Source of the DNA: an uncultured Spartobacteria bacterium
Lineage (GTDB): Bacteria; Verrucomicrobiota; Verrucomicrobiia; Chthoniobacterales; Chthoniobacteraceae
Length of the DNA stretch: 32,324 bases
Reading direction: 5' to 3'
Assembly: GCA_903919125.1 (NCBI GenBank)
Contig: CAIXGS010000019.1
Coordinates: 1-32,324, forward strand
Below are positions 3,183 through 32,238 of the stretch, in pieces. The notes below the pieces were generated by a model. It was not told the DNA's origin, did not search any database, and worked only from the letters and a program-made list of their open reading frames with translations. Both the position numbers and the translations under genes were made by a program. Within the stretch, counting starts at the first letter, position 1. Each line of letters begins with the position of its first letter.

Positions 3183-3183
3183 T

Positions 3184-18402: not shown

Positions 18403-21400
18403 GGAATCAAACCACCTTTCACAGACAGGAACCCACAAGCATCAAGCTCCAAATCCCACCCATGGATAGCCTTCTGAAGAGTTTCCAACCCCTCAATTTC
18501 CTCTTCCCAACCGTGCGCTCTTGCGGCCTCTGCTTGCCGGATTTGCTCAGCAATTCTAGCGCACTCAGCCTCAATGGAGGGTGCAAGCGAGATTGCAAAA
18601 AGTTTTTTTGCCTCGATACGCGCTTTCGCCTCTGCCCTATTCACAAGTGCCTCCCATCCCGAGTTGGCGTAATGGTCTGAGAGCACTTGAGTTCTTCCGT
18701 TGTTGAGCGTGAAATTCTGCCAAACCTTATTTTTCGTCTCGTTAGTCAACGACCTCCTCAGAGAGAGAAGTTCCAATGCAGTCGACGCCAATTGGAGGTC
18801 TTCCCCGACAAAGCAATGTTCGGTCCGTACGGCTAAAACCCGGTCCAAATGTTTCCGATGGCCCGGGTGCCGAGTAAGCAGACCGTAATCGCCAAACGGG
18901 CGATAAGAGAATTCGAATCCTCTCCACGGTGAATGGTCCACATGACACTCAACCGCATAAGTCCGTCCCTTTGTGGAATGGTTCAACGAGGCGCAAACCG
19001 CATCAAAGAACTCGTTTCCAACACTAAAGAATTCAAGATCTGGCCGCTCTTGGGCGATTTGTCGGCGGAATGTGCCTACACGGTCGGGTTGGACTCCATC
19101 TTGAGTGGCGGTTAATCGAATGGAACCCGCGGGAATCTGGTTCGGTCGGAAGTCCAAGATACATTTGTCAGGGAGGTCGCCTGTGGGCGGAAAGCCAAGT
19201 GCACCAGGACCGCAGACGAAACTGAACCAGTCGCAAAACGCCTCCTCAAGAGCGATGTCCCTGTCAGGAGTCGACTGTGCTCGACGAAATACCTCGGCGC
19301 TAACTCGATCGAGGGAAGCCTCATCGAGCACACCTTGAGCGTCGTCCTCGGATCGCTCGAGTTCGGCCCGCTCCTTGATGTCATCAACGAGCGCATTAAG
19401 GTCCTCGTAACCACCAGAGATTGCAGTCTTAGAAATCTTTGCCTCAAGTGCAGTGAGGGCGAACTCAAGCCCACTGATCGAGCGCGTAAAAATCTGAAAG
19501 CCAGATTCCAGACAGCGTAACCATCCGTCTTCCTCCTCACCAATTGAGAAAAGCACGTTGGAACAAACACTAGAAGTTTTGCGGCCTAAACGGTCTAATC
19601 GACCGATGCGCTGCTCTATCTTTGAGACACTCCAAGGAAGATCAAAGTGGATCAATTCATCGACAAACTGGAAGTTGCGGCCTTCTCCTCCAGTCTCATC
19701 GGAGACCATAAGCCAGCACTGAGGATCGCGCTTAAACCTCATCGCGGCCTTCTCTTTAGCCTTTGTTTCCATGTTCCAGGTAAACTGCGCAATACCTGCC
19801 GCCCCAAAAGTTTCAGACAAGTACTGCGCCAATTTCTCCCCTAGACCGAAGAAACCTGCAAAAATGATGAATTTTTTCGATGGAGTTTTCCTGTGCTGTT
19901 TTCGGAGGAAAGATATCAGGGTCGCAATCCTTGCCGAATTATCGGCTTTTTGGCTCCAGTTTTCTGCTGCGCGCTGAAGCGCAAGTAGCGCTTCGTCCTC
20001 CCATCGTTCTCTTACAGCCCCCAAAAGACCTGACGCATATTCACTCCAATTTTGATAGCCAATCTGACCACCAAACTCCAATAAGTTTGTTTCTTCCTCT
20101 GAATTGGAATTGAACACAGAGACAAACTCTGCGAAGCAACCGGGATCGCACAAGGAATGAAATAAGTGCCTCGTCAGCGGCAGTAAAACTCTATCTTCAA
20201 CCCCACATGCCTGCAGGCTTTGCAAAAAGGTGCGAACTGCGGAACTGGCGTCCAGCTCGAATTGGTCAGGATCATGCCCCAAGCGACACATCTTTCTATC
20301 AATCCGCAGGTCGGGTTCGACGTCGAAGAGTTGGCTTCGGCGATTTCGCAGAATGCGCCTGCTAATCCGATACCGATCGCCGATGTAATGCAACAAGGCA
20401 TGGACATCGCCTATAAACTTTGTTGGATCGGTTGGATCGAGTGACTCCGCCAAGGAAAGCAACTGTTCATCCTGTGCCAGTACCGGGAAAGAACACAATT
20501 CACTGATTTTTTCTATGATGCGGTCCGCGGACTGTTCTTCATCAGCGAATTCTCCGAGTCGCCTCGAAATATACCGGAGTTTTCGGCCTAGTTCGATTTG
20601 ACGGTCGTAAAGTTGCTTAAAGTTCGCCTGAACATCAGCACTGTCGATGTTGTAGCGATGCGGTTCAAGCAAAGCGAGTAGGCGCAGATATTCCTCTTCG
20701 CGGCGTTGGACTGGTATGGCACTGAGAAGAAGGCATCCCCGTGCATTTCGAGAAAGGCTTTGCGTTAGATCATATAGTTCAGGAAACTCGATTACGTGAT
20801 GGGTTTCATCTACGACAACCAAATCCCATTCACTCTCTTTGATTCGCGACGCAAACAGCAACGCGTCGGTGAACGATACAATCACCTTCCTCGGAATTTT
20901 CCCATAGGCCGCCGCCTCGAGGTGGAGTTCTAGCAGGCTAAAGACCTTGCCAGAAAACTTGGAATACAATTCGCAAAGCCACTGTTGGGTGAGTGTTCCT
21001 GGACATAGAATCAGAATGTTAGCGTCCGGTTTCTGCTCCAAGATATCGTGAATTACGATTCCAGCTTCTATCGTCTTGCCCAACCCAACCTCGTCCGCGA
21101 GCAGGTAACGAGGAATACGATCCATCAGAACCGTACCTGCGACATAAGCCTGGTGCGGTCGCAGATCGATGCGACTCGATAGCAAAGCGCGAAGCCCAAG
21201 AGCACCGCGTGCGCTTGCCCCCCAGGCGGTTAGAAGTGACTCCCGCTTCTGGAAAGTTCCATATCCCTCTAACTGAAGTTCCGCTAACGCTACCAGCGGA
21301 CATGTCACCGGGGGAAGTTCTACAGGGACCAAATCAACTTCGGACACTTCCCTCGAAATTCCGTCATCGAACTCGATTTGATAGCGGTGCGGTTCGTTTG

Positions 21401-21638
21401 CAATAACTGCGGCAAATATGCTTTTAATCCGACAGTCAATGTACTTTTCGGCCTCTTTAAGTTTACAAACGGTGTTAAGCGGTAGAAGCGCTCGTCTTAA
21501 ACTGGGTCTTCCACCAACTGTTCTAGCGAGTTCCTTCGGTTCGTTAACCGAAACAAAAAAAACAATAAACCGTCCCCCTTGATCGTTGAAGATCTTACCA
21601 ATACCGAAGCCGCTGTGCTTCACAATGAAACCAATCAT
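18399..21638 (-). CDS. dpdE: DpdE, SNF2-like helicase/translocase
   Basis: This 1079-aa SNF2-family protein has an N-terminal small beta domain (about 1-110, starting MIGFIVKHSGFGIGKIF), of the kind seen at the start of RapA/SNF2-like proteins. It is followed by ADEVGLGKTIEAG (about 181-193), VVDETHH (about 275-281), LLSAIP (about 304-309) and the C-terminal lobe motif EQRIGRLDRLG. A conserved GGEGRNFQ segment precedes motif VI. All ATPase motifs are intact. It is the first gene of the eight-gene minus-strand operon, 147 bp downstream of queD. DpdE is the SNF2-like member of Dpd clusters and probably moves along double-stranded DNA. The ATG at 21638 has no obvious Shine-Dalgarno sequence. Confidence 0.85.
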   Translation of the reverse strand: MIGFIVKHSGFGIGKIFNDQGGRFIVFFVSVNEPKELARTVGGRPSLRRALLPLNTVCKLKEAEKYIDCRIKSIFAAVIANEPHRYQIEFDDGISREVSEVDLVPVELPPVTCPLVALAELQLEGYGTFQKRESLLTAWGASARGALGLRALLSSRIDLRPHQAYVAGTVLMDRIPRYLLADEVGLGKTIEAGIVIHDILEQKPDANILILCPGTLTQQWLCELYSKFSGKVFSLLELHLEAAAYGKIPRKVIVSFTDALLFASRIKESEWDLVVVDETHHVIEFPELYDLTQSLSRNARGCLLLSAIPVQRREEEYLRLLALLEPHRYNIDSADVQANFKQLYDRQIELGRKLRYISRRLGEFADEEQSADRIIEKISELCSFPVLAQDEQLLSLAESLDPTDPTKFIGDVHALLHYIGDRYRISRRILRNRRSQLFDVEPDLRIDRKMCRLGHDPDQFELDASSAVRTFLQSLQACGVEDRVLLPLTRHLFHSLCDPGCFAEFVSVFNSNSEEETNLLEFGGQIGYQNWSEYASGLLGAVRERWEDEALLALQRAAENWSQKADNSARIATLISFLRKQHRKTPSKKFIIFAGFFGLGEKLAQYLSETFGAAGIAQFTWNMETKAKEKAAMRFKRDPQCWLMVSDETGGEGRNFQFVDELIHFDLPWSVSKIEQRIGRLDRLGRKTSSVCSNVLFSIGEEEDGWLRCLESGFQIFTRSISGLEFALTALEAKISKTAISGGYEDLNALVDDIKERAELERSEDDAQGVLDEASLDRVSAEVFRRAQSTPDRDIALEEAFCDWFSFVCGPGALGFPPTGDLPDKCILDFRPNQIPAGSIRLTATQDGVQPDRVGTFRRQIAQERPDLEFFSVGNEFFDAVCASLNHSTKGRTYAVECHVDHSPWRGFEFSYRPFGDYGLLTRHPGHRKHLDRVLAVRTEHCFVGEDLQLASTALELLSLRRSLTNETKNKVWQNFTLNNGRTQVLSDHYANSGWEALVNRAEAKARIEAKKLFAISLAPSIEAECARIAEQIRQAEAARAHGWEEEIEGLETLQKAIHGWDLELDACGFLSVKGGLIP

Positions 21639-21785
21639 AATGGCTAAAATTGGCTTCTGACGACATTGATGCGTACTAAATGCGAGTTCATGGTTCCAGT
21701 GCGGAAAAATCCGCCAAAGAGCACGCGCTTAGTGCATGTCGTCCAAGAGTAGAGCGAACAGTTGTGGAGGTCAGCAATATTTGGA
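21639..21785 (-). other. Intergenic gap between queD and dpdE
   Basis: This is the only sizeable gap inside the minus-strand run of que and dpd genes. It contains a small GCGGA-AAAA-TCCGC hairpin (21701-21714) with no T-tract on either strand, so it is not a convincing terminator. A promoter for the dpdE-dpdD operon might lie here, but no good -35/-10 pair was seen. Confidence 0.4.
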
Positions 21786-22241
21786 TCACTCCCCGTACTC
21801 TGCCCAAGCACTGGAGGTTTCCCACAGCCTGACAGACCGAAGCCGAACACTAGCTTGAAGGGGATAGCGAACATTCGGTTCAGACATATATCCCAAAAGA
21901 CTGGATGAGCAAACATCAAAGATAGTCTTGGCCATCAGTTCTGTTGTGGGGTCCTGCTTTTCAAATGGGATGATCCGGTCTCCGTAGGCTGCCTTGAAGG
22001 TCTGAAACATAGGATCATCGGTGTTCATGGCCATGGCATGGTCCCATGCATCCAGAAACTCCCCCATGAGTTCCTTGATGATCTTGAAATCGCAGACCAT
22101 CTCGTTGGCATCCAATTGCTCTGCTTCCAAAACAAACTCGACCTTCCGGGTGTGCCCGTGGGGGAACTTACACTTGTCGGGATGTTTGGAGAGCATGTGA
22201 CCACTCTCGATTTCGATGGTTTTGCAGATTCGGTAAGGCAT
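21786..22241 (-). CDS. queD: 6-carboxytetrahydropterin synthase QueD
   Basis: This 151-aa PTPS-family enzyme converts dihydroneopterin triphosphate to 6-carboxytetrahydropterin in preQ0 synthesis. Zinc and catalytic residues are visible: His15 in ESGHML, then CKFPHGH with Cys24, His28 and His30, then WDHAMAMN (Asp67-His68), then DPTTELMA and the terminal VRLWETSSAWAEY, all typical of QueD. The frame runs upstream to 22322, but the ATG at 22241 gives the family's usual N-terminus and lies 4 bp after the queE stop. It is third in queC-queE-queD and feeds base precursor to DpdA. No FolE is seen in the window. Confidence 0.95.
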   Translation of the reverse strand: MPYRICKTIEIESGHMLSKHPDKCKFPHGHTRKVEFVLEAEQLDANEMVCDFKIIKELMGEFLDAWDHAMAMNTDDPMFQTFKAAYGDRIIPFEKQDPTTELMAKTIFDVCSSSLLGYMSEPNVRYPLQASVRLRSVRLWETSSAWAEYGE

Positions 22242-22245
22242 GGGA

Positions 22246-22941
22246 TTAGGTTCCGCGTTTGTTGCCAAAGAGCTCAACGTGCAGGCGGTTTGCGAAACGG
22301 TACCCGCGATCTTTACAGACACCGATGATAAAGTCAGTCCGGTCCCTTAAGGTTTTGAGCGAAGTGCCTTCGGGCATGAGTTGGATTTTATGAGCAGGAA
22401 TCGGAAAAGGGAGCCGTGAGATAAGATCCTCCAATTCGGCAAGGTCCTCAGGGGATTGGACAACAAACTTAAACTGGAAGGAATAACACGACGCCCAAGC
22501 CGCAAGTACCTCAGGCTGAAACCTGATGGCATCGTGTTTTGCACGCCAGGACTCGGTAATTTCACCCGAGATTGGAGTGGAGTTGCCCAGCTTTGGACTG
22601 ATCGATGCCAGATCGCACGCAATCCCCTCCGGAGGAATGGTGCCTGCCGTCTCGATGGTGATATGCTTGCCCCGCGCCTTCAGGGCTAACGCGAGCGCAT
22701 GGATATCCTTGGCAACCATCGGTTCGCCACCTGTAAGAACCACATGCGCCGCGGGGAATGCACAGACATGATCGACGATCTCTGCTACGGATTTGTGCTC
22801 TCCTTCAGGGCTCCAAGACGCGTATTTCGTGTCGCACCAGCGGCATCGAAGATTGCAACCGGACGTCCGCACAAAGACCGACGGCACACCGGTCAGTTCG
22901 CCTTCTCCCTGAATCGAGTAAAAGATTTCAGAAATCAACAT
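22246..22941 (-). CDS. queE: 7-carboxy-7-deazaguanine synthase QueE
   Basis: This 231-aa radical SAM enzyme contracts the pterin ring to 7-carboxy-7-deazaguanine. The N-terminus reads YSIQGEGELTGVPSVFVRTSG, followed by the cluster motif C29-x3-C33-x2-C36 (CNLRCRWC) and VLTGGEPM. Length and motif spacing fit QueE. The ATG at 22941 lies 2 bp after the queC stop. It needs S-adenosylmethionine, which is of interest because a MetK-like gene lies about 1.2 kb upstream in the same direction. Confidence 0.94.
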   Translation of the reverse strand: MLISEIFYSIQGEGELTGVPSVFVRTSGCNLRCRWCDTKYASWSPEGEHKSVAEIVDHVCAFPAAHVVLTGGEPMVAKDIHALALALKARGKHITIETAGTIPPEGIACDLASISPKLGNSTPISGEITESWRAKHDAIRFQPEVLAAWASCYSFQFKFVVQSPEDLAELEDLISRLPFPIPAHKIQLMPEGTSLKTLRDRTDFIIGVCKDRGYRFANRLHVELFGNKRGT

Positions 22942-22943
22942 AC

Positions 22944-23633
22944 TCAGGACTGGGACGGCTTCTCAGGGAGGGGAGCAAGACTTGCGTAATCAGTGGGATC
23001 CGAAATACCGGTAAGCATGAACGCCTCCCGACGTTCTACGCAGGTTCCGCAGGTCCCGCAGTGAATTTCTCCCCCCTTGTAACAGGACCATGTTTGGGCG
23101 AAATCAACACCCAACGAGTGCCCTCGTGCGGCAATCTGGGCTTTTGTCAGGTGAATAAATGGACGCAGAACCTGAATCTCAGCGTAAGTTCCCAACCGGA
23201 TGGAATCGCTGATGGACTGCATAAAATCCTCCCGACAGTCCGGGTAGATGGCATGGTCACCGGAGTGGGCAGCAATGACCAGAGCCGAGGCGCCCACGCT
23301 TTCGGCGAATCCGGCGGCGACCGCGAGCATGATGCCATTCCGAAAGGGCACAACCGTCTGTTTCATGTTCGCCTCCTCGTAGTGCCCGTCGGGGATCGCC
23401 CCACCTGACTGCAGAAGATCGGAGCGGAAGAGTTGGTTTATAAAGTCCAACCGAATCGTGTGATGCGGGACCCCGAGTCGAGTCGCGTGCTTCACGGCGA
23501 AAGGAATCTCCAGCGGATTGTGCTTCGAGCCGTAATCAAAGCTCAAAGCGCCCACCACTTCATGCTCCTTTTCCGCATGGTAGAGCGCAGAAACGGAATC
23601 CATCCCACCACTTAGAAGAACGACGACTTTCAT
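22944..23633 (-). CDS. queC: 7-cyano-7-deazaguanine synthase QueC
   Basis: This 229-aa ATP-dependent enzyme makes preQ0 from 7-carboxy-7-deazaguanine and ammonia. It has the PP-loop LLSGGMDSVSA at the N-terminus, SFDYGSKH, and the C-terminal zinc site Cys184, Cys192, Cys195 and Cys198 (HCGTCGTCVERREAF). The frame runs upstream to 23849, but only the ATG at 23633 gives the usual MKxVVLLSGGMDS start. No Shine-Dalgarno sequence is visible. It is the first of the three que genes and is separated by 106 bp from the upstream unknown gene. Confidence 0.95.
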   Translation of the reverse strand: MKVVVLLSGGMDSVSALYHAEKEHEVVGALSFDYGSKHNPLEIPFAVKHATRLGVPHHTIRLDFINQLFRSDLLQSGGAIPDGHYEEANMKQTVVPFRNGIMLAVAAGFAESVGASALVIAAHSGDHAIYPDCREDFMQSISDSIRLGTYAEIQVLRPFIHLTKAQIAARGHSLGVDFAQTWSCYKGGEIHCGTCGTCVERREAFMLTGISDPTDYASLAPLPEKPSQS

Positions 23634-23739
23634 GAGACTCACGCTAACATGGAACTCGGTTGAATATCCAAGAGACTCAGAAGTTATCTGTGTTTGTACC
23701 AGTGAACCGAATTTTCCCACGGCTTTACCTCTTCCGGCC

Positions 23740-24156
23740 CTACAGAAGCTCAAGCGCACCTTCGGTGTCATCTCGGGAAAGAAGCGTCTCGATGGCCTGC
23801 ACGCGCTCCGCTTCGGGCCAGATGGTCCACCCTGAATAGTTGCACCCAAGGGTTCCCGCGCCCTGCGTCATGTGTGCCCAACCGCCACCAAATCCCCAAC
23901 TCTTTTTGGGTGCACCGTGGATGTAGTCGGGAACGTAAAGGTATTTGAGCGGCACAATCAATCCGCCAACCCCAATTTCTGTGATCGTGAGGTTCTCGAT
24001 TTTGGCGAGGCAGATGAACCGCTCACAGTAGATCACTTTGTTTTCGTGCAGATTCTCAAAAAATGGTGTCCACACGGAGCGTCTAAATACGGCATCACCG
24101 CCACTGCCCTGTAATGCCGGGCCAGGGTATTTTGCGAGCAAGTCGTTCAGTCTCAT
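23740..24156 (-). CDS. Unknown 138-aa protein between MetK-like gene and queC
   Basis: This 138-aa protein is not recognised. It is rich in aromatic residues and glycine in its second half (GAPKKSWGFGGGWAHM and GTLGCNYSGWTIWP) and has a short acidic tail. No transmembrane segment, signal peptide or known catalytic motif is seen. It starts 27 bp after the MetK-like stop and ends 106 bp before queC, on the same strand, so it probably belongs to the same transcript as the MoxR-VWA-MetK genes. Coding status is supported by tight spacing and by the lack of a better frame, not by homology. Confidence 0.6.
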   Translation of the reverse strand: MRLNDLLAKYPGPALQGSGGDAVFRRSVWTPFFENLHENKVIYCERFICLAKIENLTITEIGVGGLIVPLKYLYVPDYIHGAPKKSWGFGGGWAHMTQGAGTLGCNYSGWTIWPEAERVQAIETLLSRDDTEGALELL

Positions 24157-24183
24157 AATGCTTTTTGGATAAAGTTCAGTTTC

Positions 24184-25296
24184 TTATTGCTCCCACGAGT
24201 GCGTCTGGTGTGCGAAGTACCCACGCAACAAGTCAGCGCGCCAGTCCCGCTCAGTCAGCTCGAGGTCGCGCACAATCTGTTTGATTGAAAACCAGTCCTC
24301 CACGGGCAGTTCCTCCCTCGGTAGTTGAAGACGCACGCCTCCCGTGCTTGTCACCGCTTCCACAAGAAACGGGGCGTCCCCACCGGGTGCCCAGCCCAAG
24401 GTGACCGTGGCCTCGTCCGCTCCAGCCCGCACCAACTGCTTGGCAAGTTGCCGTGCGCGTAGTGCGCCGCATTTGTCGATCTTGTGCGGGTCCTTGCCCG
24501 AAAGTGCGCCGCCTCCAATCGGCACCAACGGACCGTAGTGGTCGATGACCAGCTTCTTGCCAGACAGGCCATTGTCCCCCTCAGGTCCGCCGATGGCGAA
24601 TTCCCCTGCCCCGTTGAGAACCAGTTTGCGCGGATTGAAGTGGGTTGAGATTCCGTTCAATCCGGAGGCTTCCAGCTCCTCGAGGATTTGCAACAGATGC
24701 GGCCACAACAGGCGGTGCTGCTCCTCCTGCGCTAGTCCGGGGCGGTGCAGAATGCTCAGCACAAGACGGTCCCAATCCAACCCACCGGCGTGTTCCTCGA
24801 GTGAAGCGAGAATTTTAAAATCAGGTCCGAAGATGGCGGCCAACTCAGGGTCACTCCTCACAATTTTGAACAGTCTTCTGCCAAGCTCACCAGCCACCCA
24901 ATGCGCCGTCGGCAGATGGTTGGTTGCCTCCGAATTGCAGGCATACCCGACCACGACATTCTGATCGTCGGAAAACGGGCGGATATCCGACTCCAACGCC
25001 GGCAACTCTTCCTCGCAAAGGTCATCGACGATCCTCAGTTTGGCTGGGTCGGGAATCCATTGGTCGCCGTATCCCGCAGCCTCATAGACTTCCCGAACAA
25101 TCCGGTGGCTATCAACCGGATCAGCTCCAGCGGCGACGCGGCCGTCAATGAAGACCACATCTCTGTGGACGGCCACCTCAACACCCACAAGGGCGTCTGG
25201 GCGTTGCCGTACGGCCTCAGTGACGATGCCCTCGGCAATGGCATCCGCAAGACGGTCGGGGTGACCGGGTGAAACATATTCAGCGTAGATTTTCAT
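24184..25296 (-). CDS. Divergent S-adenosylmethionine synthetase-like protein
   Basis: This 370-aa protein has the three-part MetK pattern. VSPGHPDRLADAI (about 8-20) matches ES.S.GHPDK.AD. DDQNVVVGYACNSE (about 110-123) matches GDQG..FGYA..E. NGAGEFAIGGPEGDNGLSG (about 228-246), with PIGGGALSGKDPHKIDK (about 259-275), matches the FVIGGP.GD.GLTGRK and HGGGAFSGKDPTKVDRS segments. Several near-invariant positions differ: GDQG is DDQN, HGGG is IGGG, and the final region is shortened. It probably binds ATP and methionine, but it may be an altered or specialised enzyme and not the housekeeping MetK. It starts 7 bp after the VWA gene and is thus co-transcribed with the MoxR-VWA module. SAM supply to QueE or another partner is possible but unproven. 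Confidence 0.85.
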   Translation of the reverse strand: MKIYAEYVSPGHPDRLADAIAEGIVTEAVRQRPDALVGVEVAVHRDVVFIDGRVAAGADPVDSHRIVREVYEAAGYGDQWIPDPAKLRIVDDLCEEELPALESDIRPFSDDQNVVVGYACNSEATNHLPTAHWVAGELGRRLFKIVRSDPELAAIFGPDFKILASLEEHAGGLDWDRLVLSILHRPGLAQEEQHRLLWPHLLQILEELEASGLNGISTHFNPRKLVLNGAGEFAIGGPEGDNGLSGKKLVIDHYGPLVPIGGGALSGKDPHKIDKCGALRARQLAKQLVRAGADEATVTLGWAPGGDAPFLVEAVTSTGGVRLQLPREELPVEDWFSIKQIVRDLELTERDWRADLLRGYFAHQTHSWEQ

Positions 25297-25303
25297 GGAG
25301 TGT

Positions 25304-26881
25304 TTAGGGTTTGGGCAGTTGGTTGAGTTCGGAAATCCAAGGCTTGAGATCGGCGTCGTACGCGGGATAAGTCAGCGCGGCTACCGTGCGTATTTTTGCG
25401 AGACTGGAAAGGAGGTGGCTTCGCGCAGAACCCACATAACCGTCAGTCACGATGAGGATAACCTTCGGTCGCTTTTTAGCTGGAATGGAGGCGGCATGAA
25501 CCAGCACCGCGTTGATGTCAGTGCCCTGCGTGTTGGCAAAGGTGGCCCTCGTGAGGTTGCTTCCCTTGACCTCGCTGACCACCGTGGAAAAGGCGAACAC
25601 CTTGAGTTCGCCCCTGCGGAAGGGTTCACGGCAGGCTGCGGTCAGATACGGCAGGTAACCCGACATGGAGCCGCTCACATCAAGGTAGAGATGCACCACC
25701 GGCACCCGCTTCGGTCGTGGGCGGATTTGGCAATCCAGAGAACGGTAGATGAGGGGCGTGCGGCCCGTGATGGCTTTGAGGGCCGTCACCCGTCGGTCCC
25801 GTTCGTCGGGTACGACCGATTCGCGCACAAACTCCGTGATCGTTAATTCGCGCCGATAGACCGCCGGTCCCCGCCCTGAATGGATGCCGCAGCGCCGCAG
25901 CAAGCCCTTGAATGCTTTGGTAAACGCCGACCCGGGCTTTTCTTCGTGGTTGAGTTGAAAAGCCCCCGCGCTCCTTCCTTCGTCACGCCCTGCAATCCGG
26001 AATGGCGGGGGAGGCCAACCTTCCACAATTCGCCGGATGACGCCGGTGAGAAGCGGATCCGCGGCTTCCCCGCCATCGTGGTTTCCAAGCAGCTTTACCT
26101 TTAGTTCGCTCCCTGCAACCGCAGGCGCGTCGTCCTCTTCGGTCGAAGACGCATCCCGCTTATCCTCGTCAATTTGGTGCTCAAGTCGGCCTGACTTGGA
26201 TACGGCCTCTTCTCCGTCGCTGCCCTTGCCTTCCTCGGTCGGCGGCGGAGTCTGCGCCTTCACTTCTCCCGTAATTTGAACTTGGAAGGCTCCGGAATCG
26301 TCATGCTTCCCAAAAGAGCGTCGCAACAGGCGATAAATGTCGTGGTAAGTCAGGGCATCATCACTTTCGCCATACAGCAGACGAATCACGCGGGCTTCTT
26401 CCTCGGGCAGATTGACGAGCGCGGCTTCAAAAGAACCCGGCCAACCGGGAGGAGGTCGCAGCAACCTGGCGGGAAAATCCTCCCACGCGTTGGTTGAGGT
26501 AAACAAACGAACGCCGACGCTCCTGCCCACGGTGCGGCTAAGGATCGAGTTGATCACCGCATCAAACGCGATGTTATCAATCCGGTCGACCCTCGGAAAT
26601 AGCCGCGTGTGCCCGAGAATGACATGGTGCAATTCGTGAAGAATCAGCAAAAACAGATCACCGTCGTCCGCGCAGTACTCTTCCACAAAATGGCGGTTGA
26701 GAAGAAGTTTCGGCGTGTCTCTGCATTCCACACAGGCCGTTTCGGTTTGGTCGCTGTATTCGATATCGAGCAGGCCGAATAGCTTTTCGAGCTGATAGGA
26801 AGCCGAGGGCAGGACATTGAAGATTCTGGCGCGAACTTCAGCGGCATCGGCGTTGCGGGGTTTGTTATATAAAAGGTTCAT
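25304..26881 (-). CDS. Metallopeptidase-like (DUF2201-type)/VWA-domain protein
   Basis: This 525-aa protein has an N-terminal zinc-peptidase-like domain, with LHELHHVILGH (HExxH at 82-86 and a further His91). A charged, low-complexity linker follows (about 205-265). The C-terminal von Willebrand A domain has the MIDAS motif DVSGS (about 401-405) and later VTDGYVG. This DUF2201-VWA architecture is the usual partner of MoxR AAA+ ATPases. The frame is open to 27118, but the ATG at 26881 overlaps the previous TAA by one base and starts at a sensible N-terminus (MNLLYNKP). It probably acts with the MoxR ATPase as a chaperone or remodelling pair. Both motifs look intact, so metal binding and possible peptidase activity are plausible. 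Confidence 0.88.
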   Translation of the reverse strand: MNLLYNKPRNADAAEVRARIFNVLPSASYQLEKLFGLLDIEYSDQTETACVECRDTPKLLLNRHFVEEYCADDGDLFLLILHELHHVILGHTRLFPRVDRIDNIAFDAVINSILSRTVGRSVGVRLFTSTNAWEDFPARLLRPPPGWPGSFEAALVNLPEEEARVIRLLYGESDDALTYHDIYRLLRRSFGKHDDSGAFQVQITGEVKAQTPPPTEEGKGSDGEEAVSKSGRLEHQIDEDKRDASSTEEDDAPAVAGSELKVKLLGNHDGGEAADPLLTGVIRRIVEGWPPPPFRIAGRDEGRSAGAFQLNHEEKPGSAFTKAFKGLLRRCGIHSGRGPAVYRRELTITEFVRESVVPDERDRRVTALKAITGRTPLIYRSLDCQIRPRPKRVPVVHLYLDVSGSMSGYLPYLTAACREPFRRGELKVFAFSTVVSEVKGSNLTRATFANTQGTDINAVLVHAASIPAKKRPKVILIVTDGYVGSARSHLLSSLAKIRTVAALTYPAYDADLKPWISELNQLPKP

Positions 26882-27444
26882 TAGATGATGGCTAGGGGGT
26901 CGTCGAAGGCGATGGGGAGATCGAGCAGAGTGTCCCAACTGAGGTTTGGGGCGCGTCTGGAAAGGAACAGCGGCCCCGCGCATTGGGAGAGAATTCCGGC
27001 GCACAGAAGCGGATCCGAGCAGAAGACGGGCTTGAGCAGACGGATCTGGCTGCTCGAGTCGTCGGTGTTCAAATCCTCGTAGCGCACCCTGTAACCGATC
27101 AAAAAATCGGCAGCCCAATCGGCGGAAATCGGCTGCCCGATCTGGGCGAAAAAGTCGGTCGGGGTTTCAAACAGATCGCGCAGTCTCTGCGACAGTTTCG
27201 GCAAGGAGTCGGGCAGCTCGTGTCCGATGCGTGGGATCCCGTCTCTTTCCCAATTCCAGCTAACGCCACGATTCCTTTTCTTGGATGTGCGTTTGGAAGC
27301 CTCGGCTTGGGTGGGCGATGTGGGATGCACCTTCTGGGCCAAAGCCCAGACGAAACACACGATCTTGGTTTGCCCGGCGACCGTATTTCCGCGGAGCGTG
27401 ATGCTCGTGCGCGGAGGGGCGCTCATGTTGTGGAGAAAATTCAT
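26881..27444 (-). CDS. Unknown 187-aa protein between MoxR and VWA genes
   Basis: This 187-aa protein is not recognised. The preferred ATG at 27444 overlaps the MoxR stop as ATGA; the frame itself extends to 27477. It has a basic patch (ASKRTSKKRNRG, about 62-73) and several Trp and Phe residues in the second half. No membrane or signal segment is seen. The 4-bp overlap upstream and 1-bp overlap downstream indicate coupled translation with both partners, so it is probably an obligatory third component of the MoxR-X-VWA module, such as an adaptor or substrate. This is an inference from spacing. Confidence 0.68.
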   Translation of the reverse strand: MNFLHNMSAPPRTSITLRGNTVAGQTKIVCFVWALAQKVHPTSPTQAEASKRTSKKRNRGVSWNWERDGIPRIGHELPDSLPKLSQRLRDLFETPTDFFAQIGQPISADWAADFLIGYRVRYEDLNTDDSSSQIRLLKPVFCSDPLLCAGILSQCAGPLFLSRRAPNLSWDTLLDLPIAFDDPLAII

Positions 27445-28922
27445 AACGATTCTCCCTCCAATCCGAAGCGGTCCCACAGCTGGGTGAAGAAATCCTGCAG
27501 ATCCGGTGGTTCGATCGAATTGTAGCCGTCTGGCAAAAAGCCGTTGAGCAGGTTTCGTGTGTACAGGTCTTTGGGAGTTTTCCTCAAAGTGCTACACAAG
27601 TTGGAGACCTGGCGGCACCGTTCGAGCGTTTTTCCGTAAACCTGATGCGTCGTGTTCTTCGGGCGCAGAACATCTTTCAACTGCCCCGCAAGCGTCTCTG
27701 CGGCAGTCGCTGCGATCTTTTTCGCGACCCTCAACTTTAGGTAGATGATCAACGCAACCGCGCTCCGCTTCTCCTCGCCTTTTTGTGAGGCAACCGCCTC
27801 AAGCACAAGCGACGAAAAATCCGCCTCAGAAAGGGGAAAGCCCGCGCGTGAAGCGACCAGCACACGCTCAAGCGGATCCGTGATTTGGAGCAATTCCTTC
27901 CACGGGTCGTTCTCCTCAAGCCCCGCGATGTTCCACGCCTGCCGATGCAAGGCCAGCAGGGCAGCCCGGTCCAGAGACCGCTCCGCCAGGCCTGGATGTC
28001 CGTGCGAGAGCGCAAGGAAGAGCGTGGTTTCCAAGTCGGGCGCGATTGTTTTCCCACCGAGTTGTTCCAATGTGATGCGGGCAGCTTGGATGCCCAAAGC
28101 AGTCCGGAAAAGAGTCGATAGACGACGGGGCGAGAACCGCGTTCCTACGCCACGGAGTTGGGCTTCGAGGGCGATAAAGTAACTGCACAGGTTTGGCGGG
28201 TTCTCGCAAAAGAACCGGAACGTGGCTTCCGTTCTACGCACGAGTTCACGAACATCGACGGGGAATTCGTGCCGACCGCGGAACTGGTCGAGCAGGATCA
28301 CGCTTCGGTCTGCGTCGGTGAGGTCACTCCAATCCGGCACCTCGATCAGAAAGCCAAACCGATCGGCCAATGCAGGATCCAGCGACTCCGCGCCAAGGTA
28401 GACGTCTCCGTCGTCGTCATCCGTTGGCGGAGGGTTCATGGCCGCCCAGCGGTAAGAGAGCTTTTCCAGTGGAATGCCCTGCACGCGTCGCTCGTGAATG
28501 ATCGAGAACAGCTTGTTTTGCAGGTCTGGACGCGTGCGGTTTAATTCGTCAATGAACACGACCTCGGCGTCCCAGATCGCCGTGGGGGTGCTGATGTAAC
28601 GCAGCGCCGTGTGCTGTTCGTTGGGAACGGGAATTCCGACTAGATCGTCGTAGTTGATGAGGGAGGCGTTGTAGAAGCGGTAGTTGAGTTGGAGTACCTG
28701 CGCGAGTCGCTCGAGCAGGAAGCTTTTCGCGGTGCCGTGTTTGCCGATGAGCAGTAAAGGTTCTCGCGTGGCGAGTGCGGCGAGCAAAACGGGTTCCAGA
28801 CGTTCCCACCCCAGCAGACCGAGCGGTTTGGTGAGGAAGGAGGGGGCCTGCTTTTTCTTCGACGCAGTGCCCGGGATGGGGGCCGTCTTTTTGGTGGGTG
28901 TGATTTTCTTTTGGGTAGGCAT
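27441..28922 (-). CDS. MoxR-family AAA+ ATPase
   Basis: This 493-aa AAA+ protein has a short Lys/Thr/Pro-rich N-terminal tail (1-30). Walker A LLLIGKHGTAKSFL (about 56-70) and Walker B VVFIDELNRT (about 121-130) follow, then AAMNPP and DPALADRFGF, as in MoxR/RavA ATPases that work with VWA proteins. The Gly-Lys-Ser core is intact. The C-terminal half is helical and less conserved. It is the first gene of the MoxR-X-VWA-MetK run, and its stop overlaps the next ATG. MoxR ATPases typically remodel or activate a partner with the VWA protein as adaptor; the target here is unknown. Confidence 0.9.
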   Translation of the reverse strand: MPTQKKITPTKKTAPIPGTASKKKQAPSFLTKPLGLLGWERLEPVLLAALATREPLLLIGKHGTAKSFLLERLAQVLQLNYRFYNASLINYDDLVGIPVPNEQHTALRYISTPTAIWDAEVVFIDELNRTRPDLQNKLFSIIHERRVQGIPLEKLSYRWAAMNPPPTDDDDGDVYLGAESLDPALADRFGFLIEVPDWSDLTDADRSVILLDQFRGRHEFPVDVRELVRRTEATFRFFCENPPNLCSYFIALEAQLRGVGTRFSPRRLSTLFRTALGIQAARITLEQLGGKTIAPDLETTLFLALSHGHPGLAERSLDRAALLALHRQAWNIAGLEENDPWKELLQITDPLERVLVASRAGFPLSEADFSSLVLEAVASQKGEEKRSAVALIIYLKLRVAKKIAATAAETLAGQLKDVLRPKNTTHQVYGKTLERCRQVSNLCSTLRKTPKDLYTRNLLNGFLPDGYNSIEPPDLQDFFTQLWDRFGLEGESL

Positions 28923-29019
28923 GGCGTTTGGAGGCGTTGGAGTTGTCGAGCTGTTGGGTTGCAGAACAGGAAGGCGTGCTGTCTCGGTCGCTCTGAGGAA
29001 GAGGAGTGCGCCGACTGCG

Positions 29020-29256
29020 TTACGCTGCGAGCGCGAGCGGGCGCGTTTGCGTTTGTTGCGGTGCGTCCCAGGTGAGTAGCACGTCCCGAATGGCGCGTGC
29101 CGCCTTGACGTTGTGGGTGCGAAGGCTCAGGCGCACCCTGCGCTTGGTGTAGTCTGCGAGGTGCTCGGTGTAGTGCAGCCACCACGTGCCGTTGTTGTTC
29201 CAGAGGTGGTGGTTCGGGTTGCTGCCGATGCGGATGGCGATCTTTGAGTTTTTCAT
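29020..29256 (-). CDS. Small protein resembling an integrase arm-type DNA-binding domain
   Basis: This 78-aa protein (or 85 aa from a GTG at 29277) contains NNGTWWLHYTEH followed by KRRVRLSLRTHNVKAARAIR. That pattern, a short beta unit with a 'W.hY' strand, a Lys/Arg-rich turn, 'SL.T.....AR..RD', is typical of the N-terminal arm-binding part of tyrosine recombinases. No catalytic domain follows. It sits 97 bp upstream of the MoxR gene and downstream of a strong terminator-like hairpin. It may be a small DNA-binding regulator of the MoxR operon, or a remnant of an integrase. No Shine-Dalgarno sequence is visible. Confidence 0.55.
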   Translation of the reverse strand: MKNSKIAIRIGSNPNHHLWNNNGTWWLHYTEHLADYTKRRVRLSLRTHNVKAARAIRDVLLTWDAPQQTQTRPLALAA

Positions 29257-29295
29257 GGTGCGTGTGGGAATTGACACACCAGAAACCCGAGCAAC

Positions 29296-29329
29296 AAAAA
29301 ACCGCCGATCCCAATCAGGAAGCGGCGGT
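29296..29329 (-). terminator. Intrinsic terminator or attenuator (minus strand)
   Basis: Read on the minus strand, the 7-bp stem ACCGCCG/CGGCGGT continues after one mismatch into TTCC/GGGA around a 5-base loop (TGATT), and is followed directly by a run of six T. This is a convincing rho-independent terminator. It lies 40 bp upstream of the 78-aa gene, so it either ends Fic-side transcripts or acts as an attenuator in the leader of the MoxR operon. Confidence 0.72.
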
Positions 29330-29553
29330 AAAGGCGCGGAGAGATTTTTGTTCAGCGGATTTTTCCCCGCTGCGCATCGAGAGGCACTCGCCCCTCAGCC
29401 ACCGTAGGATTTCTCCGTCCCCGGTTGGCAGCACTGGTTACCCAATGCGTTCCTGATGTGTTAGTGAGTACAGCAGACCGGACTGGAGTAGGCAACTGCT
29501 GTGTGTGTCATAAAAAATCAGGGCTCGTCTGCCAGACGGCATCTGCCGAATGA

Positions 29554-29608
29554 AAAGCTATAAAAGCTGAGAAAGTCCCGCACACACTTTGATAGCTTTC
29601 ACAGCTTT
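29554..29608. repeat. Palindrome with tandem 9-bp AAAGCT motifs
   Basis: The left arm (29554-29575) carries AAAGCT at a 9-bp period followed by AAAG. The right arm (29587-29608) is its inverted copy, with 17 of 22 positions matching across an 11-base spacer. The motif repeats within each arm, so it is not a plain hairpin. It is likely a protein-binding array (operator or iteron-like), but the binder is unknown. Confidence 0.6.
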
Positions 29609-29697
29609 CCAAGTGGTAACTGATGCGACTTTTTGCCGTCAGCAATCATCTAACTCAGACGCCCAAGACAGAATAGGGCCCGCGCGACATTTAGAAA

Positions 29698-30822
29698 TTA
29701 CTCATGGGCAACAATTTGAAGATGGTAGCGAGTGCTCTTCAAGTTGCCTGTTCGAATCAGCGCTTTCTTCTCCGCGAGGGCTTGAAGATCACGGGTTGCA
29801 GTGGCGCGGGAGGTGCCGGTGATGCTGATGTATTTCTCCGCGCTCAATCCACCTTTGAACCCGTCCGGTCCCTCGCGCATCATCCGCGCGATCACCTTTT
29901 CCTGGCGTTCGTTGAGTTGCCCGCGGAAACGATCATAGAATTTGGTCTTGGCGATGATGAAATCAACGAGGTTCTGTGCCCCCGATTGAGCCTCGATTAC
30001 GGTCCGCGCAAAATAGCCAAGCCACTCGGTGATTTTGTTGCACCTGTTGCTGGCCTCAAGCATCTCGTAGTACGTCTTGCGCCCACGGTTGATGGTCTGA
30101 GACAGGGCTAGCAGGGTGGCATGCCCCAATCCCTCCGAGATGGCTTTTTCTGCAATAGCGCGGCCTATGCGACCGTTGCCATCCTCGAATGGATGGATGC
30201 AGACGAAGTAGAGGTGAGCGATGCCGGCGCGGGTTAAAATGGGGAGCGGCGAATCTCCCGTTGGCGCGGTGCGTTGGAACCAACGCACGAACCGCCTCAT
30301 TTCGTCTGGAATGATCGCTGACGGTGGAGCTTCAAAATGAACCCTGGGGGAGTGGATCGGACCCGACACCACCTGCATAGGGTATTCATCCGTGCGGTAG
30401 CAGCCAACGTCCTTGAGGTCACGCCTACCGTTCACGATCAGCTTATGCCAATGAAAAAGAAGTTCTTCGGAAAGCGGTGCGTCAAACTGTCGGTAAAGCT
30501 CCACCATCATCTGAGCGATGCCTTGCTCGGCTGGTCGAACCCTCCGATGGTCGGTGCTGAGGCCGAAGTTGCGGCGAATAGAAGATTGCAGGCTGTCGCG
30601 GTTCAGCATCTCGCCCTCGATCTCTGAGGTGTTGATCGCCTCATTGCTGATTAATTCGATACAAAGCTGCTGCTTGTCCTCGTCGCCAACGTGCCGAAAT
30701 GAGCCAATGAAAATGCCCGATTGACGCAGGAATTCCGCTTCGAGCGCCTCCATTTTTGCGCAGTCGTAGCGAAATTCTGGCCAATCCTTGAGCTGCCAGT
30801 TCCAAATCGCTGAGATGGGCAT
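29698..30822 (-). CDS. Fic-family AMP-transferase with self-inhibitory helix
   Basis: This 374-aa protein has the Fic core HPFEDGNGRIGR (about 210-221), with catalytic His210 and the phosphate-binding GNGR. An N-terminal inhibitory motif, TSEIEG, has Glu69 (S/T-x3-E-G/N), so it is a class II, self-inhibited Fic. The first 60 residues resemble the DUF4172 domain often fused to Fic, and the C-terminal 60 look like a winged helix (SAEKYISITGTSRATATRDL). Fic enzymes AMPylate protein Ser/Thr/Tyr side chains; the target is unknown. A TTG at 30828 could extend it by two residues, but ATG 30822 follows an AGGAAG site with better spacing. An operator of three TTATTGCTC copies lies directly upstream, consistent with autoregulation through its winged helix. 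Confidence 0.9.
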   Translation of the reverse strand: MPISAIWNWQLKDWPEFRYDCAKMEALEAEFLRQSGIFIGSFRHVGDEDKQQLCIELISNEAINTSEIEGEMLNRDSLQSSIRRNFGLSTDHRRVRPAEQGIAQMMVELYRQFDAPLSEELLFHWHKLIVNGRRDLKDVGCYRTDEYPMQVVSGPIHSPRVHFEAPPSAIIPDEMRRFVRWFQRTAPTGDSPLPILTRAGIAHLYFVCIHPFEDGNGRIGRAIAEKAISEGLGHATLLALSQTINRGRKTYYEMLEASNRCNKITEWLGYFARTVIEAQSGAQNLVDFIIAKTKFYDRFRGQLNERQEKVIARMMREGPDGFKGGLSAEKYISITGTSRATATRDLQALAEKKALIRTGNLKSTRYHLQIVAHE

Positions 30823-30840
30823 GATCAAAAATCTTCCTAC

Positions 30841-30894
30841 TTATTGCTCACAATGATCTACTTTCACGAGCAATAAATCCAGCGCTTATTGCTC
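30841..30894 (-). promoter_or_regulatory. Three-copy operator upstream of fic
   Basis: The 9-base motif TTATTGCTC occurs at 30841-30849 and 30886-30894, with its exact inverted copy GAGCAATAA at 30868-30876. The set ends 18 bp before the fic ATG and straddles the expected promoter. This looks like a binding site for a dimeric winged-helix protein, most simply the C-terminal domain of the Fic protein itself. Confidence 0.7.
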
Positions 30895-31029
30895 AGGAGA
30901 GGGGCATTCCCATCACCAACCGCAACGAAGCCATCAATTTTGCCCCCCCCCTCTACAGTTCGCATTGGAATGGTGCCGTCTACGCCCTAGATGAAAAATT
31001 TGGAACCAGTTCAATGTAGGTTTCGTATT

Positions 31030-32091
31030 TCATGGCCGGCAAAAGCCTTCCCATTCCCGCAATGCAGATGCTGCGTCTGGCCCTCGCAAGCCCGTCCTTT
31101 GCAGGTCTAGATAAATTTGTGCATCGCTGACAAGTGTTAGCCCGCCACGATGCTGGGTTTCGATAAAAAGCCCCTCATCGTCCGGGGTGTGGAGCCAAAG
31201 CTTTCCACCGTCAGTCACCGGACGGAGGCCAAGTTTTTCCAGCGCAACAGCTCCAAGAGGACGGTCAACATACGCGGAACAGACTGCTGGTTCTGTATAG
31301 GGGTGCCGCGTCCAAGCAGCACTCCACTGGGTGAAGGCCAATCGCGCTTTCTGAGACTCAGCCCATTCTTGAAGCCGATCCGAGAGTTCTTGAGGCGAAC
31401 CAAAGAAACCCGCGTAGAGGGTGGAGCGGACTCGTTTTGGAAATCGGTCGGAATCCGCCCAAGAATCAAGCAACCCCAGCCAATCACGGAGGCGAAACTC
31501 GCGGGCAGTGATTTTTTCCACAAACCCCTGACCGATTAAATACTGGATGATGCGCGAGACTAGGCCAGAACTCGCCCCGGTTCGCCGCGCGATCTCCGCT
31601 TGGGTCCAGATGCGGTCGCGATCGGAGAGCATGCTGCGGATGATGCGTGCGCTCTTGCCAACGAAAATATTGCGCGGTTCCAATTCGTAGCGGAACGAAC
31701 GGCCTTGCAGAGGACCGCGGTCGATAAGCAATCCGGGTGCGCGAAGCCATGCTCGGCCATTCAAGTCGATGGCAGCCACGTTGTGTGCTTTGCAGGCTGC
31801 AAGGACGCGCGGGGACAGCTCGGGCGTGACGAGCAAGAGGCGCGACGAAGAGGAAGAAACCTCAAGTTTTTCCAGCCACGGGACGCTGGGTTTTAGGGCG
31901 TAGAGGAGACGGAACTCAAATCGGCTGCCGTCGAATTCAAGTGCCAAGCGGTCTAATTCGTAGCTTGCTGGCGTCTGACTTTCCGCACAAAAAGTCCAGT
32001 GAAGGTCAGGGTAGTCTTGGATAAGTTCACGAAAGTGGGCCGCGAGCTCACTCTCGTGTCGGATAATCCCGTTTTTACTAGAACCCCTCAT
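31030..32091 (-). CDS. AbiEi-like winged-helix regulator (antitoxin-type), no partner seen
   Basis: This 353-aa protein is taken from the ATG at 32091; a GTG at 32097 gives two more residues. A central winged helix-turn-helix, IWTQAEIARRTGASSGLVSR, follows FVGKSARIIRSML, the arrangement seen in AbiEi-type antitoxin/transcription regulators. The N-terminal part has RLALEFDG, LLLVTPELSPRVLAAC and VAAIDLNGRAW. Type IV AbiEi normally represses its own promoter and is followed by the AbiEii nucleotidyltransferase toxin. Here the next downstream gene, after about 200 bp, is Fic and no AbiEii is present. A 21-bp inverted repeat surrounds its promoter. The family call is reasonable; an antitoxin role is uncertain without a toxin. 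Confidence 0.72.
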   Translation of the reverse strand: MRGSSKNGIIRHESELAAHFRELIQDYPDLHWTFCAESQTPASYELDRLALEFDGSRFEFRLLYALKPSVPWLEKLEVSSSSSRLLLVTPELSPRVLAACKAHNVAAIDLNGRAWLRAPGLLIDRGPLQGRSFRYELEPRNIFVGKSARIIRSMLSDRDRIWTQAEIARRTGASSGLVSRIIQYLIGQGFVEKITAREFRLRDWLGLLDSWADSDRFPKRVRSTLYAGFFGSPQELSDRLQEWAESQKARLAFTQWSAAWTRHPYTEPAVCSAYVDRPLGAVALEKLGLRPVTDGGKLWLHTPDDEGLFIETQHRGGLTLVSDAQIYLDLQRTGLRGPDAASALREWEGFCRP

Positions 32092-32176
32092 TTTCACTGG
32101 AGAGTAAGAATATGATTCGGCAAGAGGAAGGCAAGACCGTTACTGGATTCGGCTATTTTTACTCACCAGTGAAAAT
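32090..32176 (-). promoter_or_regulatory. Inverted-repeat operator around the AbiEi-like promoter
   Basis: The left arm (32090-32110) and right arm (32156-32176) are inverted copies matching at 19 of 21 positions (core ATTTTCACTGG and GAGTAA), separated by 45 bp. AbiEi antitoxins are known to bind two inverted repeats at their own promoter and bend DNA, so this is likely the autoregulatory operator. The left arm covers the start codon. Confidence 0.72.
32107..32134 (-). promoter_or_regulatory. Sigma70-like promoter of the AbiEi-like gene
   Basis: On the minus strand, -35 TTGCCT (32129-32134) and -10 TATTCT (32107-32112) are 16 bp apart. Transcription would start near 32100, about nine bases before the ATG, giving a nearly leaderless message. 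The pair lies between and against the arms of the inverted repeat, as expected for repression. Confidence 0.5.
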
Positions 32177-32238
32177 CAGAGTCATACCATCTCTGTGAAA
32201 TAACTGGCCTTTTTGTCAGGATATGATTAGCCTAATTC

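What the first reader, a model, noticed from the sequence alone, without database searches (positions are those of the whole stretch)
23740..28922. MoxR-X-VWA-MetK module physically linked to queCED and the Dpd cluster
Five same-strand genes (MoxR AAA+, unknown 187 aa, metallopeptidase-VWA, divergent MetK-like, unknown 138 aa) abut queC-queE-queD with gaps of at most 106 bp, and the first four are overlapping or 7 bp apart. MoxR-VWA pairs are known; a SAM synthetase-like member in such a module next to a DNA 7-deazaguanine system is, as far as I know, not described. It may be a SAM-supplying or SAM-consuming accessory of Dpd, or an independent ternary system that lies beside it.
Basis: partly seen in the sequence, partly recalled or inferred. 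Interest (0 to 1): 0.82.

Follow-up and report, generated by a model that had tools for sequence, protein, structure and literature searches.

The report
MoxR-vWA gene cassette with altered SAM synthetase
A travelling set of four to five bacterial genes, found next to but not belonging to a DNA-modification defence cluster, pairs a protein-remodelling machine with a SAM-synthetase relative whose methionine-binding site has been changed, so it probably makes a different and still unknown compound.

Summary
A small gene Y (29020-29256) upstream of MoxR was missed. The link to Dpd looks like chance adjacency: dpdH was found in 0 of 14 other cassette genomes, and nine que/dpd proteins gave no hit in 56 related locus records. 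The cassette itself is conserved and patchy. A scan of 84,980 species genomes gave 41 loci with the MetK-like gene (MetK') in many lineages; MoxR-vWA-MetK' order holds in 33 of 34 with enough upstream sequence, with X recognised in 29 of those 33. MetK' forms one clade apart from housekeeping MetK. It keeps the ATP and triphosphate residues but replaces two methionine contacts: Glu55 is Arg in 42 of 42 rows, Gln98 is lost in 41 of 41. So MetK' probably adenosylates something other than ordinary methionine. The MoxR P-loop (GxxxTAKS) points to MoxR-vWA conflict systems, here as a subtype I found no description of. Function is untested. Most likely: an accessory, perhaps immune, MoxR-vWA machine using a MetK'-made adenosyl compound.

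The parts
29020..29256 (-).
   Evidence: DUF6538 E 0.0048 here, 1.6e-4 in L041, both below Pfam's cut-off
27441..28922 (-). MoxR AAA+ ATPase, 493 aa, P-loop GKHGTAKS
26881..27444 (-). X: 187-aa protein with N-terminal motif HNMSxPPR[TS]; no Pfam or NCBIfam family and no PDB relative found
25304..26881 (-). vWA protein: N-terminal HELHHVILGH zincin-like motif, C-terminal vWA domain with DVSGS MIDAS motif
24184..25296 (-). MetK': divergent S-adenosylmethionine-synthetase paralogue, 370 aa, two methionine-contact residues replaced
23740..24156 (-). U138: unknown, found only on two related contigs besides the window; passenger or lineage-specific accessory
21786..23633 (-). queC-queE-queD: neighbouring preQ0 genes of the Dpd cluster; not part of the cassette

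Best explanation
It is a self-contained accessory cassette, Y-MoxR-X-vWA-MetK', spread patchily over many lineages, that lies by chance beside the Dpd cluster. Shown: the cassette, its conservation, its occurrence without Dpd, and the clade-wide change of the MetK' methionine pocket. Inferred: MetK' is an active enzyme that uses ATP and its triphosphatase chemistry to adenosylate a substrate other than ordinary L-methionine, giving a SAM-like compound. Inferred from known MoxR-vWA pairs: a MoxR ring remodels the vWA-HExxH protein, with X as adaptor or substrate, and so switches a metal-dependent (peptidase-like) output on or off; the MetK' product is the small-molecule signal or cofactor of that switch. 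Y probably binds DNA and controls the operon. The likeliest role is a regulated conflict (anti-phage) system.
For: Autonomy: 41 MetK' loci; MoxR-vWA-MetK' order in 33 of 34 with upstream sequence, X recognised in 29 of the 33; X found in 4 of 387 phylum genomes, all 4 with MetK'; the five strongest vWA hits among 343 Planctomycetota genomes all have MetK', though two of the five were known from the MetK' scan; distances of the four proteins correlate at r 0.845-0.948 over 26 loci (shared ancestry contributes). Patchiness: 3 of 12 genomes of the genus, 4 of 57 relatives, several incomplete. Not housekeeping: a separate canonical metK in the own genome, in 6 of 6 and 5 of 7 further genomes. Rewired pocket: R at E. 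coli E55 in 42 of 42, Gln98 lost in 41 of 41, P at I302 in 38 of 39, while H14, D16, E42, D118, K165, D238, K245, K265, K269, D271 are kept in nearly all rows; the human equivalents Glu70, Gln113 and Asp258 bind the methionine main chain (passages of PMC6850014 and PMC7271947). Conflict-system kinship: GXXXTAKS P-loop as described for two MoxR-vWA conflict classes (PMC7159879 section 22); bpMoxR hit above cut-off; best Foldseek hit of the vWA model is a NorQD complex chain. Context: restriction genes beside several cassettes (L039, L063, L057, L050).
Against: No assay. In human MAT2A the Gln113Ala mutant keeps about 76% of SAM production, so loss of that residue alone does not abolish methionine use, and the counterpart of Asp258 is retained; MetK' could still make SAM. 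Two of 14 genomes checked (G444, G445) show no canonical MetK beside MetK' (completeness not told). Some cassettes (L030, L031) carry a canonical-type MetK instead, with Glu55 and Gln98 intact, and L035 and L036 carry both. Weaker vWA relatives have no MetK in the stretches held. The flanks hold many ordinary metabolic genes, and the defence comparison is small and not matched. No plasmid match to the vWA protein. X has no fold match; in the second structural look NorD was not among the 50 best vWA rows.
Confidence: 0.4

Rival explanations
1. MetK' is still a SAM synthetase, an isoform with another way of holding methionine, which secures SAM for the MoxR-vWA system or the cell.
For: Catalytic ATP and triphosphate residues and the Asp238 equivalent are kept; sister cassettes L030 and L031 use a canonical-type MetK, and L035 and L036 have one besides MetK'; G444 and G445 show no other MetK.
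Against: Glu55 to Arg in 42 of 42 reverses the charge that holds the methionine amino group; Gln98 and Ile302 are also replaced clade-wide; 12 of 14 genomes have a canonical MetK as well. L035 and L036 keep both types, so the two are probably not interchangeable.
Confidence: 0.2
2. The cassette is a maturation machine, like CoxD/CoxE or NorQ/NorD: MoxR and vWA insert or remodel a metal or adenosyl-type cofactor that MetK' helps to make.
For: The best Foldseek matches of the vWA model include three NorQ/NorD complex entries; VWA_CoxE is the Pfam hit; MoxR-vWA pairs with known roles are often metalloenzyme chaperones (recalled; the abstract start of PMC3893208 in the listing speaks of maturation of protein complexes).
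Against: No client enzyme gene recurs beside the cassette (flanking ORFs of 80 aa or more recur in at most 4 of 43 loci), which client-specific chaperones usually have (recalled); patchy spread.
Confidence: 0.2
3. MetK' is a decoy or guard: an inactive look-alike that phage proteins aimed at host MetK would bind, triggering MoxR-vWA.
For: A paper title in the reference list of PMC12839542 says that phage T3 SAM lyase also inhibits SAM synthesis; MoxR-vWA systems are proposed to have a sensing component (passages of PMC12839542 and PMC7159879).
Against: A decoy need not keep the whole ATP and triphosphate site, yet nine of the twelve catalytic residues listed in PMC7271947 are identical and one is conservative, and the methionine pocket is changed in one consistent way.
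Confidence: 0.08
4. The module is an accessory of Dpd that supplies or consumes SAM.
For: Tight same-strand adjacency in this window.
Against: dpdH in 0 of 14 other cassette genomes, 12 of the MetK' kind and 2 of the canonical-MetK kind (own genome found as control); no hit of queC, queD, queE, dpdA, dpdB, dpdE, dpdF, dpdH or dpdJ in 56 related locus records of 748,563 bases; in congener G390 other genes follow U138.
Confidence: 0.03

Closest known systems
MoxR-vWA-centric ternary conflict systems (VMAP, iSTAND, FtsH and beta-propeller classes; PMC7159879, passages and section 22 seen)
   Same: Adjacent MoxR and vWA genes with further constant components; MoxR P-loop GxxxTAKS as often in the FtsH and beta-propeller classes; a peptidase-like motif in the vWA protein; spread in Verrucomicrobiota, Planctomycetota and others.
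   Different: None of the four third components was recognised; MetK' and X stand in their place; the HExxH region is constant, not one of a variable set; the vWA domain ends the protein. A term search of that paper shows no SAM synthetase.
MoxR-vWA chaperone pairs NorQ/NorD, CoxD/CoxE, RavA/ViaA
   Same: AAA+ plus vWA architecture; NorQD complexes are among the best Foldseek matches of the vWA model.
   Different: No recurrent client enzyme here; MetK' and X are added; RavA model scores 18.6 bits against a cut-off of 681.
Methionine adenosyltransferase (MetK)
   Same: N, M and C domains by sequence; ATP, metal and triphosphate residues kept.
   Different: 32% identity to the own genome's MetK; TIGR01034 score 171.4 against a cut-off of 309.4; methionine contacts Glu55 and Gln98 replaced clade-wide.
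Dpd 7-deazaguanine DNA modification system
   Same: Neighbour in this window.
   Different: No shared component; no co-occurrence in the 14 other cassette genomes searched.
SAM-AMP signalling in type III CRISPR (abstract start of PMC12255297 in the listing)
   Same: Precedent for a SAM-derived second messenger in defence.
   Different: Formed from ATP and SAM by the Cas10 pathway, not by a MetK homologue.

Membership tests
Dpd system accessory | Occurs in genomes with dpd genes | tested here: not met
   dpdH in 0 of 14 other cassette genomes; positive control own genome
Dpd system accessory | Conserved adjacency to que or dpd genes | tested here: not met
   0 tblastn hits of nine que/dpd proteins in 56 locus records
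MoxR-vWA-centric ternary systems | MoxR AAA+ gene paired with a vWA gene | tested here: met
   33 of 34 loci with upstream sequence
MoxR-vWA-centric ternary systems | P-loop variant GXXXTAKS ('often' in the FtsH and beta-propeller classes) | tested here: met
   window GKHGTAKS; exact form in 14 of 30 loci with the P-loop, T/S/C-AKS in 29 of 30; description
MoxR-vWA-centric ternary systems | Beta-propeller C-terminal to vWA (beta-propeller class) | tested here: not met
   the vWA domain spans residues 392-526 of 526, the end of the protein
MoxR-vWA-centric ternary systems | VMAP, iSTAND or FtsH as third component | tested here: inconclusive
   no such family named in the cassette proteins by Pfam or NCBIfam, but the paper's own alignments were not compared
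MoxR-vWA-centric ternary systems | Variable effector domains | tested here: not met
   HExxHxxxxH motif in 33 of 33 vWA proteins that reach that far
MoxR-vWA-centric ternary systems | Acts against invaders | not testable with these tools
   needs phage assays
MetK (SAM synthetase) | N, M and C S-AdoMet synthetase domains | tested here: met
   (M domain 28.0 bits, cut-off 29, so just under)
MetK (SAM synthetase) | NCBIfam equivalog cut-off TIGR01034 | tested here: not met
   171.4 bits against 309.4
MetK (SAM synthetase) | Twelve conserved catalytic residues listed in PMC7271947 | tested here: not met
   window: nine identical, Arg264 to Lys, Glu70 to Arg, Gln113 to Glu (human to E. coli numbering matched by me)
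MetK (SAM synthetase) | Makes SAM from ATP and methionine | not testable with these tools
   needs enzyme assay
DUF2201 putative metallopeptidase | PF13203 above cut-off | tested here: inconclusive
   15.4 bits against 23.2; HExxHxxxxH motif present
DUF6538 for Y | PF20172 above cut-off | tested here: inconclusive
   17.0 bits for the window protein, best 21.7 (L041), against 27

The most novel reading that the evidence does not exclude
MetK' is a new class of adenosyltransferase that makes an unknown SAM-like nucleotide from ATP and a non-methionine substrate, and this compound is the signal or cofactor of a fifth class of MoxR-vWA immune system spread over many bacterial phyla. The swap of Glu to Arg at the amino-group site, with mostly Glu at the carboxylate site, would even fit a substrate held the other way round, such as a D-amino acid or a carboxylate-headed thioether.
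Probability: 0.28. Interest if true: 0.88.

Novelty: new variant of a known kind. Interest (0 to 1): 0.66.

Why it matters
If MetK' makes a compound other than SAM, it is a new natural product of one of the most conserved enzyme folds in biology and a possible new nucleotide signal. It also adds a subtype to MoxR-vWA conflict systems, whose triggers and outputs are largely unknown, with a purifiable enzyme as an entry point. For the window, it removes a false lead about Dpd.

Tried and rejected
Dpd accessory: rejected. U138 as core member: rejected. Viral scan with X: 5 stretches matched a pattern, no relative. Plasmids with the vWA protein: no match. Phages with MetK': 125 records, all under 60% identity, the 15 listed at 32.4% or less; I did not look at their pocket residues. 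X model (pLDDT 77): no PDB match (best E 6.5; 16 chains aligned again, none at Z 2); profile searches of PDB sequences with X and with vWA were empty. vWA model (pLDDT 75): the vWA part matches many vWA domains; the N-terminal part was barely tested because one domain filled the list, and no NorD row is among the 50 shown. Rfam: no RNA in 21000-32324. Promoter-like sites: 2 against 2.6 in shuffles. Recurrent neighbours: none beyond Y, and in a few kin U138 and HTH355.

Weak points. In some searches my queD query was out of frame and tested nothing; repeated in frame. One search used two peptide patterns, so 41 loci is a lower bound; two of its 43 loci (L074, L075, Patescibacteria) have a canonical pocket and were dropped from the MetK' counts. 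Residue counts are over 43 rows (the window and 41 loci, L059 as two pieces), gaps left out. L069 (fragment, no vWA in 1.7 kb upstream) is the one exception of 34. X was not recognised in L059, L066, L068 and L071. Five MetK' rows (two L059 pieces, L069, L071, L073) were left out of the tree, which is a quick one with long branches. Weaker vWA relatives lack MetK in what was held: G227, G323, G346, G692, G581, G465, G611 (2.5-3.5 kb only). Of the 14 genomes, G140 and G160 have the canonical-MetK kind of cassette, and the G392 contig ends inside vWA. One search scored only part of the first-look candidates. Defence-context test: of 187 flanking ORFs of 170 aa or more within 7 kb 88 went into; control 85 of 122 ORFs from 20 Verrucomicrobiota stretches, some very short or masked; 98 against 7 PADLOC families, of which I saw 25 and 7; families overlap on few proteins, only 20 flanking proteins were scanned singly (further weak hits at L049 and L065, 15 of the 20 without a strong restriction hit), and the control is not matched, so it is suggestive only. 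Literature: searches were judged from listings (25 of 40 papers shown); none of the papers listed under MoxR plus a MetK name was opened.
Full report
OBSERVATION. The window is a whole 32,324-base contig of a 4.34 Mb genome. Judging by the names of its nearest kin it belongs to Verrucomicrobiota (inference). On the minus strand MoxR, X and vWA overlap by 4 bases and 1 base and MetK' follows 7 bp on; U138 follows after 27 bp and queC after 106 bp. A small gene Y (29020-29256) ends 97 bp before MoxR and was missed. A profile of it matches 22 locus entries, which are 18 distinct cassettes, 19 with the window. It lies just upstream of MoxR, or of the canonical MetK that precedes MoxR; in seven loci it overlaps, in another frame, the over-long 5' end of the MoxR ORF as I called it. 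It was not detected in the remaining cassettes. Its nearest family is DUF6538, below the cut-off.

INDEPENDENCE FROM DPD. Congener G390 carries the cassette at 91-98% protein identity, with U138, and other genes follow instead of que and dpd. Congener G392 carries MoxR, X and the start of vWA on a contig that ends there. dpdH is absent from all 14 other cassette genomes searched, 12 of the MetK' kind and 2 of the canonical-MetK kind, while the same query finds the own genome among 387 (2 of 387 positive). In-frame queC, queD, queE and six dpd proteins gave no tblastn hit at 1e-5 in 56 locus records, 748,563 bases, some of them the same contig held twice. One phmmer hit to dpdE in L057 is a helicase whose best PADLOC family is another, HKD+Snf2.

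SPREAD. A scan of the species genome collection with a MetK' alignment gave 43 loci. Two have a canonical pocket and another setting; 41 are MetK'. A vWA gene is found with MetK' in 39 of 41; the exceptions are a contig end (L061) and a fragment (L069). MoxR is present in 33; in seven of the other eight the contig begins inside X, vWA or just before MetK'. All 33 keep order and strand, and X is recognised in 29 of them. Record titles name Verrucomicrobia, Lentisphaerae, Kiritimatiellae, Planctomycetota, Chloroflexota, Spirochaetales, Clostridia, Bacilli, Deltaproteobacteria, Uhrbacteria and Proteobacteria, among others; some MAG labels are doubtful. Searches with vWA or X in place of MetK' agree: X in 4 of 387 phylum genomes, all 4 with MetK'; among nine vWA hits in the 387, four have MetK', two a canonical-type MetK, three none; in Planctomycetota nine of 343, of which the five strongest have MetK' (three new; two were known) and the four weaker showed no MetK in the stretches held. 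Presence is patchy: 3 of 12 genomes of the genus, some incomplete. The four proteins' distances correlate (r 0.845-0.948, 26 loci), which fits joint inheritance, though common ancestry alone also raises such values.

METK'. On a quick tree of 52 rows MetK' is one clade (support 100) apart from housekeeping MetK and from the MetK of a second cassette type. In the rows with the position present, E. coli Glu55 is Arg in 42 of 42; Gln98 is Glu in 33, Gly in 4, another residue in 4 and never Gln (41 rows); Ile302 is Pro in 38 of 39; Gly117 is Asp in 41 of 41; Arg244 is Lys in 39 of 41. His14, Asp16, Glu42, Asp118, Lys165, Asp238, Lys245, Lys265, Lys269 and Asp271 are kept in nearly all. Three further Planctomycetota proteins share Arg at 55, no Gln at 98, Lys at 244 and Pro at 302. 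In human enzymes Glu70, Gln113 and Asp258 hold the main chain of methionine (passages of PMC6850014 and PMC7271947); I match these to Glu55, Gln98 and Asp238. So the nucleotide side is kept and two of three amino-acid contacts are exchanged, in one consistent way. Against over-reading: Gln113Ala in human MAT2A keeps about 76% of SAM production, and the gating loop is short here and hard to align. Selection on MetK' is strong (dN/dS 0.12). A separate canonical metK stands elsewhere in the own genome, in 6 of 6 and in 5 of 7 further genomes; G444 and G445 showed none.

OTHER PARTS. MoxR has the P-loop GKHGTAKS; Kaur and others report GXXXTAKS as a peculiar variant often seen in two classes of MoxR-vWA conflict systems (PMC7159879, section 22 read), and Pfam's bpMoxR model passes its cut-off. 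The vWA protein has HExxHxxxxH in 33 of 33 and DxSxS in 37 of 37 sequences that reach those regions. Its model (pLDDT 75) has a NorQD complex chain as best Foldseek hit (E 6.2e-5), and many vWA domains at Z up to 11.6 over residues 392-526, NorD not among the 50 rows shown. X keeps Asn-Met-Ser-x-Pro-Pro-Arg-Thr/Ser near its start in most of 31 sequences, with the Asn invariant, and has no match of fold or sequence.

CONTEXT. No flanking ORF of 80 aa or more recurs in more than 4 of 43 loci, so apart from Y the cassette stands alone. Some cassettes lie by restriction genes: type IV enzymes at L039 and L063, type IIG and an HKD-Snf2 gene at L057, a type II methylase at L050, and Dpd in the window. 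The control is small and unmatched, and many neighbours are ordinary metabolic genes, so this only suggests a defence setting.

READING. I hold it for an autonomous MoxR-vWA accessory system of a subtype for which I found no description (and term searches inside PMC7159879 and PMC12839542). The most likely mechanism joins a MoxR-driven vWA-HExxH switch with an adenosyl compound made by MetK'. That the product is not SAM, and that the role is immunity, are inferences.

Noticed in passing
L030:5464-10928, L031:6758-11206, L035:5486-11119, L036:5472-11119: A second cassette type: a canonical-pocket MetK (Glu55, Gln98 kept) precedes MoxR and vWA; L035 and L036 carry both this MetK and MetK', so the two enzymes probably have different jobs. 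In L030 an unknown 349-aa gene lies between MetK and MoxR.
   Followed up: partly
window 29698-30828: A Fic-domain gene lies between the HTH gene at 31030-32097 and Y here, but is absent at the same place in congener contig L023, which suggests an insertion or loss.
   Followed up: partly
window 805-1944 and 2980-4308: Two DndB-type (DpdB-like) genes flank dpdA in this Dpd cluster.
   Followed up: no
window 104-796 and 4383-6233: Two uncharacterised genes at the Dpd cluster; the first has a very weak hit (E 0.2) to PF03883, the family to which DpdC is assigned in PMC12839542.
   Followed up: no
G444 (genome of L060): Clostridia MAG with two MetK'-like copies (the second judged by identity alone) and no canonical MetK detected in the held assembly.
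   Followed up: no
L032, L112, L113, L114, L129: Related MoxR plus vWA pairs without recognised MetK or X, a wider family around this cassette.
   Followed up: partly
L034:11463-12260: A calcineurin-type phosphoesterase-like gene (my reading of the sequence, no search) stands between MetK' and U138.
   Followed up: no
window about 29295-29330, minus strand: A GC-rich inverted repeat followed by a T run lies just upstream of Y, a possible terminator or leader element; seen by eye, not among the hits.
   Followed up: no
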